Origin: Proteus vulgaris
Lineage (GTDB): Bacteria > Pseudomonadota > Gammaproteobacteria > Enterobacterales > Enterobacteriaceae
Direction: 5' to 3'
Length of the DNA: 64,000 nt
Assembly (NCBI RefSeq): GCF_023100685.1
Contig: NZ_CP090064.1
Span: 2,480,001-2,544,000 of the forward strand
The notes under the pieces were generated by a model, which was given only the letters and a program-made list of their open reading frames with translations, did not search any database and was not told where the DNA came from. Positions 180-17,047 of the stretch are shown piece by piece. The stretch's first letter is position 1; every line of letters begins with the position of its first letter. Made by a program: the position numbers and the translations under genes.

Positions 180-266
180 TGGTGCCCAGGGCGGGACTTG
201 AACCCGCACAGCCTTACAGCCGAGGGATTTTAAATCCCTTGTGTCTACCGATTTCACCACCTGGGC
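180..266 (-). tRNA. tRNA-Leu (anticodon UAA), copy 3 in transcription order
   Basis: This is an 87-base cloverleaf with a long variable arm typical of tRNA-Leu. The anticodon loop TTTAAAA has UAA at the centre, and the 3' CCA is encoded. The acceptor stem GCCCAGG pairs with the CCTGGGC before CCA. It is identical over its length to the copies at 432-518 and 645-731 and is the last gene of the minus-strand Gly-Cys-Leu-Leu-Leu block. Confidence 0.97.
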
Positions 267-397
267 TAAATTGTATTTATCTGTTACAGATAATATTATT
301 AATAAACAAGGTAACAAATAAATTTAAAGTACTTACTTCTAAAATCACTAACTTTAATCTTTTACTTTTCTTTCACTAACTTGTTGCTAGTGGAAGA

Positions 398-428
398 AAA
401 AACGGACCTAAGTTGAGGTCCGCGTTTT
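398..428. terminator. Hairpin between tRNA-Leu copies
   Basis: The stem is CGGACCT at 403-409 with AGGTCCG at 416-422, flanked by an A6 run at 397-402 and a short T run on the right. It is a diverged copy of the terminator at 145-176. On the minus strand it follows the tRNA-Leu at 432-518 and ends in a T run, so it may terminate or help process the tRNA precursor before the last copy. Confidence 0.65.
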
Positions 429-431
429 ATA

Positions 432-518
432 TGGTGCCCAGGGCGGGACTTGAACCCGCACAGCCTTACAGCCGAGGGATTTTAAATCCCTTGTGTCTAC
501 CGATTTCACCACCTGGGC
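432..518 (-). tRNA. tRNA-Leu (anticodon UAA), copy 2
   Basis: Identical in sequence to the tRNA at 180-266, 252 bases away. Anticodon UAA, long variable arm and encoded CCA. Together with the preceding hairpin it forms a tandemly duplicated unit. Confidence 0.97.
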
Positions 519-644
519 TAAATTCTGTGGTGCGTCCGTAAATTCTTATAATTAAGATAAATACTGGTATGGACGACTTAACTACTGCACAATGCCATTC
601 ACAATGGACTTTTCTTTTGCACCAAACTCTTTATCTAAAAGAGA

Positions 645-731
645 TGGTGCCCAGGGCGGGACTTGAACCCGCACAGCCTTACAGCCGAGGGATTTTAAAT
701 CCCTTGTGTCTACCGATTTCACCACCTGGGC
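645..731 (-). tRNA. leuZ: tRNA-Leu (anticodon UAA), copy 1
   Basis: Identical to the other two tRNA-Leu copies. It directly follows tRNA-Cys in transcription order, which is the place of leuZ in the E. coli glyW-cysT-leuZ operon downstream of pgsA, so this copy best deserves the symbol. No hairpin with a T run follows it before copy 2. Confidence 0.97.
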
Positions 732-736
732 ATTAA

Positions 737-810
737 TGGAGGCGCGTCCCGGAATCGAACCGAGGTACACGGATTTGCAATCCGCTGCATGACCACTCTG
801 CCAACGCGCC
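737..810 (-). tRNA. cysT: tRNA-Cys (anticodon GCA)
   Basis: A 74-base cloverleaf with acceptor GGCGCGT/ACGCGCC, discriminator U and encoded CCA. The anticodon loop TTGCAAA gives GCA. It sits between tRNA-Gly and the first tRNA-Leu as in E. coli. Confidence 0.97.
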
Positions 811-835
811 TCAACTGCTCAATCTCATAAGAGAT

Positions 836-911
<76 letters not shown>

Positions 912-14852: not shown

Positions 14853-14884
14853 AAGGGCTATTTTGTAGAAACAAAATAGCCCTT
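14853..14884. terminator. Bidirectional terminator
   Basis: Perfect 14-base stem AAGGGCTATTTTGT with its complement around loop AGAA. A T run follows on the minus strand, so it ends the RNA-repair operon (stop at 14956) and, in the other direction, the DUF4822-like gene. Confidence 0.85.
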
Positions 14885-14955: not shown

Positions 14956-16092
14956 TTAAATCAAGGTTTGTGATTTTCCTTCAATCCAATAAATTACTTT
15001 ATGTGCTTCTTCTGGTGTTGGAACTTCCAATTTACTTAACATACGATCCATTACTTTAATAGGTACCACTTCGTTCCTTGCATTATTTTGCTTTTGCCAT
15101 TGAGCATAAGGCACTTCAATGTAAACCAGCGTTATTTTTGCATTATAACGATAAAACAAAGAGATCAGCTGATCTCGCATTTTTCTTGTAATATTAGTAG
15201 CATTCCAAACAAAAGGTTTATGCTCTCGTAAATAAACTCGAGCTTGCTCTTTTGCTTGTTGTGCTATCCAACCATTAGCATCTCGATTATCAGGTTTAAT
15301 ATTATGTTGGCGGCGTAGCTCATCTAAACTCACGATAGGAATATCTGCACAATATTGGCGAATATAGGTATCTTTTCCCATCCCAGGTAACCCACAAAGC
15401 ACCGTGACGTCACTTCCTTTTTCAGGATAAGGCTCATAATTACAATCAGTACTATTGTCTGTATGAAAATAGTGAAAACAGGCTTTATTTGAAGAAAATG
15501 GAGCAGGTTTACGCCAACAATTTAACTCTTCACAATAAAGTGTAAATAACGTAATTTTATCAAAAAGCCCTTGTTTATCATCACAATCTCGTCCTAAAAT
15601 ATCTGCCTTAGCCAATAAGGCCAACAAATAACAATCCACTCTTAATGATGCTGCAAGTAATGCTTTTTTAGGATCAGGCTTATCCATTACCCACAAAGGT
15701 AATCCATGAAAGCGAACTAAAGCTGCAATTTGCTCTCTATCGGCAAAAGTTAAAGGTACTTTTTCGTAGAGAAAACAACGTGTTGTTAATTCACCTTTAC
15801 GCGCATGACCCGGAGAAATAATACGCCCCTCTTCTTCCCGTGTTGTAGAACGTTTTTCTACATCATGAAGAAGTGCCGAGATCCATAAAATTTGTTGCTC
15901 TCTTTCTGTCAGGGTTCCATATTCAGGTAATGATTTAACTGAATTGATTACTCTTTGTGTATGTATCGCCACATCACCTTCTGCATGATGAATAGGGTCC
16001 TGCATAACACCTGCCATATCACTAATTTCATCGTATAATTCACAGAGGTGTTCCCATGACATCTCAGTGTGTAATTTCTTATGAAGCATCAT
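14956..16092 (-). CDS. HD-Pnk: HD phosphoesterase fused to 5'-OH polynucleotide kinase
   Basis: Two-domain RNA/DNA end-healing enzyme. Residues about 40-170 form an HD domain: IHTQRV, LLHDVEK (H76-D77), GHARKG, VRFHGLP and the final Asp in AKADILGRD. Residues about 230-378 form a P-loop kinase: GLPGMGKD (K240), SLDELRRQ with the catalytic-type Asp, and NATNITRKMRDQL with lid arginines, all in the order of T4 Pnkp-type kinases. In the characterised HD-Pnk family the HD part removes 2',3'-cyclic phosphate and the kinase phosphorylates 5'-OH ends. The gene overlaps the upstream RNA ligase gene by 14 bases, so the pair can heal and seal a cleaved RNA. Confidence 0.87.
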   Translation of the reverse strand: MMLHKKLHTEMSWEHLCELYDEISDMAGVMQDPIHHAEGDVAIHTQRVINSVKSLPEYGTLTEREQQILWISALLHDVEKRSTTREEEGRIISPGHARKGELTTRCFLYEKVPLTFADREQIAALVRFHGLPLWVMDKPDPKKALLAASLRVDCYLLALLAKADILGRDCDDKQGLFDKITLFTLYCEELNCWRKPAPFSSNKACFHYFHTDNSTDCNYEPYPEKGSDVTVLCGLPGMGKDTYIRQYCADIPIVSLDELRRQHNIKPDNRDANGWIAQQAKEQARVYLREHKPFVWNATNITRKMRDQLISLFYRYNAKITLVYIEVPYAQWQKQNNARNEVVPIKVMDRMLSKLEVPTPEEAHKVIYWIEGKSQTLI

Positions 16093-16792
16093 GAAATCCC
16101 TGTGTTTTTTCCCAGATTAACGGAGCACGTCGCCAGTTTTTTTTCCAATGAACATCCGTTTTTACATGATCTTTTCTAACATATTTAAAAACGCGATGAG
16201 AAAAATCATTTAAAGAAAATGACTGAGCATCTCGTGTCACAATACCTTCCATTGGGCTTGGTTTTTGTGTTAAAACATCTTGAGATTGAAAAAAACTCGC
16301 CTGTTTGGCTTGTGAAACAATCATATTTTCAAACTCTGCTTTATCCCGACATTCCGGCAATTTAATTTCTGGCACTGTAGGAAGATCAAACAGAGAAGCA
16401 TAAAACTGCACTTCTTCCCAACCTAGCCATTTATCTTTATAACGAACCGCAAACACATAAAAATATTCTTCTAAGTGTGCATATTCAATAGAATGAATGG
16501 CGTATAGATTTTCACCAAAAATATCTAACTCACCTAAATCGTTTTTCATCATTTGCCAACGTTGACGCAATTGAGAAGTCCATGCGGATTGCGTTGGTGT
16601 AGCATGAGAGCGAGCAAAAACTCCCATTTTATTTAGGCAATTATTTTCTCCATCCAACTTTTCTGTATGGATAAGATGTTTTATTTGGCAAATATCCTGC
16701 CACCATTGCGCATTTATACGATCGTCGTTTGTTGTGCCTGGTGAAAAAGGATAGTGATAGGTTCTATCATATTTTTGTGATTGATTATTCAT
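16079..16792 (-). CDS. ATP-dependent RNA ligase (Rnl2-like family)
   Basis: Covalent nucleotidyltransferase expected to seal 3'-OH/5'-phosphate RNA ends. Counting from the ATG at 16792 (237 residues), the motifs are: motif I EKLDGEN with nucleophile K45, then FARSHATP, motif III GENLYAIHSIEY, motif IIIa FYVFAVRY, motif IV MEGIVTR and motif V FKYVRKDHVKTD. All are intact. The frame stays open to a TTG at 16828, but the family N-terminus fits the ATG. It lacks the C-terminal domain of T4 Rnl2, as do many small bacterial ligases. It is the upstream gene of the pair with HD-Pnk; together they carry all activities needed to repair a nuclease-cut RNA. Confidence 0.88.
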   Translation of the reverse strand: MNNQSQKYDRTYHYPFSPGTTNDDRINAQWWQDICQIKHLIHTEKLDGENNCLNKMGVFARSHATPTQSAWTSQLRQRWQMMKNDLGELDIFGENLYAIHSIEYAHLEEYFYVFAVRYKDKWLGWEEVQFYASLFDLPTVPEIKLPECRDKAEFENMIVSQAKQASFFQSQDVLTQKPSPMEGIVTRDAQSFSLNDFSHRVFKYVRKDHVKTDVHWKKNWRRAPLIWEKTQGFHDAS

Positions 16793-17047
16793 TATCTTGT
16801 ACTCATTAAGTAACAGAGGTTCTACCAAATTTAACTAGTTATTCGGTAAGTGAATTTTCTGTTTCTGCACCGTGACTTCAGTGCCTTAATGCGTATTACA
16901 TAACTACAACCTAAATAATCAAAAGGGAAAGGAAATAAATCTGGAGGGATATTACATGTAAGTTTCAAAAAGAGCTAGATATTTAATCTTCAAATTTATT
17001 TGTCTCTTTGTATTAGTAGAGATTTGAAAAGAAGCTAATCATAGTGT

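What the first reader, a model, noticed from the sequence alone, without database searches (positions are those of the whole stretch)
14956..16792. Two-gene RNA healing-and-sealing operon: Rnl-type ligase plus HD-Pnk
The sequence shows an RNA ligase with all nucleotidyl-transfer motifs (EKLDGEN, GENLYAIHSIEY, MEGIVTR, FKYVRKDH) overlapping by 14 bases an HD/P-loop kinase fusion with H76-D77 and GLPGMGKD. From established family knowledge, HD-Pnk proteins remove 2',3'-cyclic phosphate and add 5' phosphate, and Rnl ligases seal such ends. The pair is therefore complete on its own. I infer that it repairs tRNA or other RNA cut by ribotoxins, in a group where RtcBA and Pnkp-Hen1 are the usual systems. 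What triggers it and which RNA it serves are open.
Basis: partly seen in the sequence, partly recalled or inferred. Interest (0 to 1): 0.85.

Follow-up and report, generated by a model that had tools for sequence, protein, structure and literature searches.

The report
RNA break-repair gene pair in Proteus
Two overlapping Proteus genes encode an enzyme that cleans up the ends of a broken RNA and an enzyme that joins them again; this gene pair is of a known kind, but related bacteria tend to carry it together with a ribosome-rescue operon, which suggests what it may repair.

Summary
Window 16079-16792(-) encodes a 237-aa RNA ligase (PF09414, E 5.8e-27) overlapping by 14 bases a 378-aa HD-polynucleotide kinase (14956-16092, -). 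Catalytic residues checked are nearly invariant; predicted folds match; a terminator follows. HD-Pnk accompanies the ligase in 78 of the 80 loci kept of 287. The pair is a known kind: Runella HD-Pnk, often beside a putative ATP-dependent ligase (recalled; papers not held).

What I add concerns its target. In 391 Enterobacteriaceae genomes the ligase is in 38 and PrfH, of the RtcB2-PrfH ribosome-repair operon, in 58; 31 have both (odds ratio 53; unrelated Cse1 3.1; but RtcA 27). In three Serratia and two Bacteroides loci the order is rtcB-prfH-ligase-HD-Pnk. The window's genome has rtcB2-prfH about 2.1 Mb away and no RtcA. Kinship is not corrected for, and Bacteroidota support is weak. My best reading: a heal-then-seal arm of repair of cut translation RNA, 16S rRNA being a candidate. 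The target is inferred, not shown.

The parts
16079..16792 (-). ATP-dependent RNA ligase, 237 aa, essentially a lone nucleotidyltransferase domain (motif I lysine K45; E94, E182, K203; motif labels recalled)
14956..16092 (-). HD-Pnk: N-terminal HD phosphoesterase domain (about residues 1-198) plus C-terminal 5'-OH polynucleotide kinase domain (about 225-378), 378 aa
16079..16092 (-). 14-base overlap of the two genes, suggesting translational coupling
16876..16903 (-). conserved upstream element TTATGTAATACGCATTAAGGCACTGAAG, 84-111 bases upstream of the ligase start, perhaps promoter or operator
   Evidence: nearly identical in the ten Proteus relatives aligned; ATGTAATAC core also in 8 of 9 Xenorhabdus and 9 of 10 Providencia upstream regions aligned (by eye); one copy in the genome with up to 3 mismatches
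14853..14884 (.). terminator-like hairpin (14 pairs), 71 bases beyond the HD-Pnk stop, reported on both strands; probably ends the operon

Best explanation
This is an HD-Pnk/RNA-ligase operon. The HD domain removes the 2',3'-cyclic phosphate (or 3'/2'-phosphate) from one end of a cut RNA, the P-loop domain phosphorylates the 5'-OH of the other end, and the ligase is adenylylated on K45 by ATP and seals the healed ends. Shown here: gene anatomy, folds, conserved catalytic residues, near-constant pairing of the two genes, co-occurrence and occasional adjacency with rtcB-prfH. Inferred: the activities themselves (from the Runella HD-Pnk family, recalled) and the physiological target. The most likely target is RNA of the translation machinery cut by ribotoxins, with 16S rRNA in ribosomes handled by PrfH as first candidate. 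The classic heal-and-seal route would act beside RtcB2, which joins cyclic-phosphate and 5'-OH ends directly, perhaps for ends that RtcB2 can no longer use.
For: Domains and folds. Conserved active sites. HD-Pnk beside the ligase in 78 of 80 loci (not found in L081 and L082). Co-occurrence with PrfH in 391 Enterobacteriaceae genomes: 31 of 38 ligase genomes versus 27 of 353 others, odds ratio 53.5; 44.8 without the 5 genomes where the genes are adjacent; Cse1 control 3.1. Gene order rtcB-prfH-ligase-HD-Pnk, same strand, in three Serratia and two Bacteroides loci and, without HD-Pnk, in Dysgonomonas mossii; an rtcB within 6 kb in 17 of 80 loci; 12-84 bases between prfH and ligase ORFs. RtcB2-PrfH protects E. 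coli from colicin E3 (PMC9223846, abstract and passages).
Against: No activity or substrate is shown. Genus-level association is less discriminating: PrfH odds ratio 36, but Cse1 also 12, and the genomes are not phylogenetically independent. RtcA also co-occurs with the ligase (9 of 13 RtcA genomes, odds ratio 27) and all 13 RtcA genomes have PrfH, so the association may be with RNA repair in general. 7 of 38 ligase genomes lack PrfH. Some of the 31 joint genomes hold doubtful copies: PrfH of G157 and the ligase of G449 have an in-frame stop, and the ligase matches of G506 and G627 are partial. In Bacteroidota only 9 of 36 ligase genomes have PrfH, against 6 of 93 others of unknown ligase status (p 0.006; p 0.08 without the 3 adjacent ones). 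In Proteus the two operons are far apart with different upstream regions. RtcB2 alone can seal colicin E3 ends, so a second ligase needs a reason. The ligase model has pLDDT under 50 at 208-225 and near its ends.
Confidence: 0.6

Rival explanations
1. It repairs tRNAs cut in the anticodon loop by ribotoxins (colicin D/E5-like toxins, contact-dependent toxins, phage-triggered anticodon nucleases), as T4 Pnkp-Rnl1 does, independently of PrfH.
For: Heal-and-seal enzymes of phage T4 act on nicked tRNA (established knowledge). The HD domain's best fold matches are tRNA processing enzymes. One Flammeovirgaceae locus has two RlaP nucleotidyltransferases beside the pair. 7 of 38 ligase genomes lack PrfH.
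Against: Does not explain the PrfH link. No extra tRNA-binding domain seen in the Pfam scan.
Confidence: 0.3
2. It is a DNA repair unit: HD-Pnk heals DNA 3'-phosphate/5'-OH breaks and the ligase seals DNA or RNA-containing nicks.
For: Runella HD-Pnk also acts on DNA ends (recalled). Fold matches include mammalian PNKP and, lower, DNA ligases. DNA genes occur in some neighbourhoods: uvrA, dnaB and ssb in Xenorhabdus and an Mfd-like protein in three Saprospiraceae (names by my reading of the sequences, no family search).
Against: The ligase matches the RNA ligase family and RNA ligase folds best. Across phyla the recurring neighbours found by sequence search are RtcB and PrfH; the DNA genes named here are, as far as I read them, each confined to one group.
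Confidence: 0.09
3. A housekeeping RNA processing or circularisation function unrelated to damage.
For: Same chromosomal neighbourhood in the Proteus relatives and within Xenorhabdus, Providencia and most of the Budvicia-type genera, so it is not a young insert there.
Against: Patchy: 38 of 391 family genomes, and a matching DNA stretch in 980 of 5426 E. coli genomes. An accessory distribution fits damage repair better.
Confidence: 0.07

Closest known systems
Runella slithyformis HD-Pnk with neighbouring putative ATP-dependent polynucleotide ligase (Munir and Shuman; recalled, nothing of it seen here)
   Same: Same domain order, HD then P-loop kinase; conserved residues H36, H76, D77, K80, H96, H129, D164, R168 have nearly the spacing of the Runella residues H33, H73, D74, K77, H94, H127, D162, R166 (Runella numbers recalled); ligase gene adjacent.
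   Different: Different organism; no biochemistry for either Proteus protein. The Runella sequence itself was not compared.
Naegleria gruberi RNA ligase and Deinococcus radiodurans ligase (Rnl5 type, name recalled)
   Different: Only 237 aa: it aligns to residues about 137-339 of the Naegleria enzyme, so the N-terminal part of that enzyme is missing.
Bacterial Pnkp1-Rnl-Hen1 repair complex (PMC4411300, start of abstract in the listing)
   Different: Here the phosphoesterase is an HD domain; no Hen1-like gene was recognised by eye beside the pair (not searched).
RtcB2-PrfH operon (PMC9223846 and PMC6514570, passages)
   Same: Co-occurs, and in some genomes is in the same gene row; patchy distribution.
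   Different: RtcB seals 2',3'-cyclic phosphate to 5'-OH directly; needs no healing.

Membership tests
HD-Pnk | N-terminal HD domain with conserved His/Asp/Lys metal site | tested here: met
HD-Pnk | C-terminal P-loop polynucleotide kinase domain | tested here: met
HD-Pnk | 2',3'-phosphoesterase and 5'-OH kinase activity | not testable with these tools
   no assay
ATP-dependent RNA ligase (PF09414) | Nucleotidyltransferase motifs and fold | tested here: met
ATP-dependent RNA ligase (PF09414) | Seals RNA with ATP | not testable with these tools
   no assay
HD-Pnk/ligase operon | Two genes adjacent, same strand | tested here: met
   In the window; in 78 of 80 loci the HD-Pnk match lies within about 0.8 kb of the ligase
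Pnkp-Hen1 system | Hen1 methyltransferase beside Pnkp | not tested
   No family search for Hen1 was run; none recognised by eye among the flanking ORFs
RtcBA system | RtcA beside RtcB | tested here: not met
   No RtcA in the genome at E <= 0.001
RtcB2-PrfH ribosome repair | rtcB2 immediately upstream of prfH in the same genome | tested here: met
   Present about 2.1 Mb away, not beside this operon

The most novel reading that the evidence does not exclude
The ligase/HD-Pnk pair is a second arm of the PrfH ribosome-rescue pathway: bacteria keep two chemically opposite joining routes (RtcB2 direct, HD-Pnk plus ligase after healing) for the same broken ribosomal RNA. In Serratia the whole row sits behind a leader peptide that would switch it on when translation is impaired.
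Probability: 0.35. Interest if true: 0.7.

Novelty: new member of a known kind. Interest (0 to 1): 0.45.

Why it matters
The RNA served by HD-Pnk/ligase operons is, as far as I recall, unknown. Co-occurrence with PrfH turns that into a testable question: does the pair re-join ribosomal RNA cut in the decoding centre, and with which end chemistry? A positive answer would show that bacteria maintain two different rRNA repair chemistries side by side, and would help explain why the pair is spread over Enterobacterales and Bacteroidota.

Tried and rejected
Viral contigs: 4 stretches matched a pattern, none a relative by tblastn, with the single sequence as query. In INPHARED 32 phage records hold distant ligases (all under 60%, best listed 48%); not followed. 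Plasmids: 47 records, two of them whole-chromosome-sized Proteus mirabilis records, the other 45 under 60%. A recent phage or plasmid origin is not supported.

Rfam in the locus: one sub-threshold hit that is the terminator hairpin; rejected as an RNA gene. No sigma-70-like site was found on the minus strand upstream of the ligase (6 sites in the region, 9.3 expected in shuffles). A leader like that of rtcB2 upstream of the ligase: an LC[RG] short ORF within 400 bases in 1 of 43 Enterobacterales loci.

PDB by sequence: nothing for the ligase, kinase-domain hits only for HD-Pnk. The Foldseek top 50 for HD-Pnk showed kinase-domain matches; the HD match came from the second look. NCBIfam: no family for the ligase.

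Literature: HD-Pnk gave one paper of unrelated title; PrfH+RtcB+polynucleotide kinase gave one. None of the passages that I saw links PrfH with HD-Pnk or an ATP-dependent ligase. The main text of PMC6514570 holds 'kinase' 0 and 'HD domain' 0 times. The Munir/Shuman paper, Burroughs and Aravind 2016, and the PNAS 2022 PrfH paper are not held, so prior description of the link cannot be excluded.

Full report

ACTIVE SITES. On an alignment of the query and 77 loci, H36, H44, H76, D77, K80, H96, H129 and D164 are in 78 of 78 and R168 in 77 of 78. In the P-loop GLPGMGKD, G237, K240 and D241 are in 78 of 78 and G239 in 77 of 78. In the ligase (query and 80 loci), K45, D47, G48 and E94 are in 80 of 81 (one gap), and E182, G183, K203 and R206 in 81 of 81. 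The aspartate after the P-loop lysine, where such kinases normally have Ser or Thr (established knowledge), is thus a family trait and not a defect here. The HD residues have nearly the spacing of those reported essential in Runella HD-Pnk (numbers recalled).

OPERON. A 14-pair terminator-like hairpin lies 71 bases beyond the HD-Pnk stop. 84-111 bases upstream of the ligase start the ten Proteus relatives aligned keep a nearly identical element. Its ATGTAATAC core is in 8 of 9 Xenorhabdus and 9 of 10 Providencia upstream regions aligned (by eye). It occurs once in the genome. No sigma-70-like site was found on the minus strand there.

DISTRIBUTION. 287 loci in genome contigs encode a relative; the best 80 were kept, and by their titles they come from Enterobacterales and Bacteroidota. 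HD-Pnk lies within about 0.8 kb of the ligase in 78 of 80 (one search's ORF clustering gives 77, because HD-Pnk of L069 is cut by the contig end). L081 and L082 lack it within the stretch. In E. coli 980 of 5426 genomes have a matching ligase stretch (60-80% DNA identity, about 72% in the rows listed, 22-23% of the query covered). In the two examined the pair sits between emrB and luxS, in one with insertion elements before luxS. In the sampled order 5 of 297 genomes match at E <= 1e-20, three of them closely. In the GTDB family of the window 38 of 391 genomes match at E <= 1e-60. One sampled genome of the same genus (G360) has PrfH but no ligase match. The gene is accessory and patchy, but its neighbourhood is largely fixed within Proteus, Xenorhabdus and Providencia.

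THE LINK TO PrfH. 17 of 80 loci have an RtcB gene within 6 kb, on the same strand. In six a PrfH gene lies between RtcB and the ligase: Serratia L056, L058, L072, Bacteroides L062 and L076, and Dysgonomonas mossii L082 (no HD-Pnk). Two of the six PrfH were checked by Pfam (RF-1 domain). Gaps between ORFs are -4 to 7 bases (rtcB-prfH) and 12 to 84 bases (prfH-ligase). This suggested a test in genomes where the genes are apart. In the same 391 genomes PrfH matches at E <= 1e-35 in 58: 31 of the 38 ligase genomes and 27 of the other 353, odds ratio 53.5, p 2.4e-23. Leaving out the five genomes with adjacent genes (G273, G421, G536, G593, G645; G593 by coordinates only) it is 44.8. Among the 58, G157 and G390 have in-frame stops in PrfH and G326 matches in part; among the 38, G449 has one stop and G506 and G627 match in part. 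Controls in the same genomes: Cse1 15 of 38 versus 61 of 353, odds ratio 3.1; RtcA 9 of 38 versus 4 of 353, odds ratio 27, and all 13 RtcA genomes have PrfH. By genus the contrast is weaker: PrfH 13 of 16 versus 14 of 131 (36.2), Cse1 13 of 16 versus 34 of 131 (12.4). The p-values ignore kinship, and small reduced genomes are among the negatives. RtcA behaves like PrfH, so part of the signal is RNA repair in general. In Bacteroidota 9 of 36 ligase genomes searched (one of 37 not held) have PrfH, against 6 of 93 others in a class sample (the centre, a ligase genome, set aside; ligase status of the 93 unknown), p 0.006; without the three adjacent cases p 0.08. That is weak support.

THE WINDOW'S OWN GENOME. 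It holds two RtcB genes, no RtcA, one PF09414 match, this ligase, and an rtcB2-prfH operon at about 385.8-387.6 kb, roughly 2.1 Mb from the window locus at 2495-2497 kb. Pnkp-Hen1 was not searched.

A LEADER BEFORE rtcB2-prfH. 48 have a 13-16 residue ORF with AGGAG or GGAGG before it, usually with LC[RG] near the end; the window's genome encodes MTTTNMNTLCGQSQK. L133 was cut off by the contig end, and L141 and L147 had none. The six bases from the middle of the Cys codon on have an exact complement downstream in 37 of 48 (no shuffle control for this count; an earlier count, partly mis-framed, of 34 of 46 stood against 0.6 expected in shuffles). In 31 of 48 the Leu-Cys codons are also complementary to the Shine-Dalgarno stretch. 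Best-match pairs vary at five of six positions; an alignment-based covariation count was not run. This resembles the leader PA5471.1 that controls armZ (RtcB-like)-prfH in Pseudomonas aeruginosa when ribosomes are disturbed (PMC12057347, PMC3516279, passages). In Serratia (L058, L072) the leader is present and the ligase and HD-Pnk genes follow in the same row, so shared induction is plausible there. In Proteus they are separate, and no such leader precedes the ligase.

MECHANISM. Shown: anatomy, folds, conserved catalytic residues, pairing, co-occurrence. Inferred: HD removes the cyclic phosphate, the kinase phosphorylates the 5'-OH, and the ligase seals with ATP. Colicin E3-type cuts leave a cyclic phosphate and 5'-OH that RtcB2 re-seals (PMC9223846, passage). 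A heal-and-seal route would serve ends already opened to a 3'-phosphate or otherwise altered. This is my explanation for keeping both, not a result.

NOVELTY. The pair belongs to a known kind (HD-Pnk operons with ligase; recalled, originals not held). I found no statement of the PrfH link in the listings, nor in the passages read, but the 2016 survey of RNA repair systems is not held and may contain it. I therefore call it a new member of a known kind and score interest 0.45; the two-track reading would deserve more if shown.

Noticed in passing
L090:5084-5131 (-) (own genome G000:C1, about 387.6 kb); upstream of rtcB2 in 48 of 51 sequences: Short leader ORF with strong Shine-Dalgarno (own genome MTTTNMNTLCGQSQK*) before rtcB2-prfH, with an exact complement of the bases after Leu-Cys downstream in 37 of 48. 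Likely an attenuator like Pseudomonas PA5471.1. Rfam on four loci gave sok in L129 and sub-threshold isrH and sR28 in L131, none over the leader ORF.
   Followed up: partly
window 16876-16903: TTATGTAATACGCATTAAGGCACTGAAG upstream of the ligase, conserved in the Proteus relatives; ATGTAATAC shared with most Xenorhabdus and Providencia ligase operons aligned, function unknown.
   Followed up: partly
L077:2374-9615: Flammeovirgaceae locus with rtcB, two RlaP nucleotidyltransferases, ligase, HD-Pnk and a second rtcB in one row.
   Followed up: no
L059:9933-11669 (-), L078:4377-5402 (-): WYL-domain regulators in the neighbourhood of eight Bacteroidota loci (cluster 26; two tested by Pfam); possible regulators of the repair row.
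   Followed up: no
L069, L079, L084: A gene of about 1130 codons on the other strand lies upstream of the ligase in three Saprospiraceae loci (cluster 63); it reads like the transcription-repair helicase Mfd (my reading, no family search).
   Followed up: no
LR756500.1 25631-26290 and other large phages: Ligase relatives (up to 48% identity) in uncultured and jumbo phages; whether HD-Pnk lies beside them was not checked.
   Followed up: no
window 180-911: Three tRNA-Leu(taa) genes, then tRNA-Cys and tRNA-Gly, in a row.
   Followed up: no
L109 (G449:C50:35559-36248): The ligase match of that genome holds one in-frame TAG; described only.
   Followed up: no
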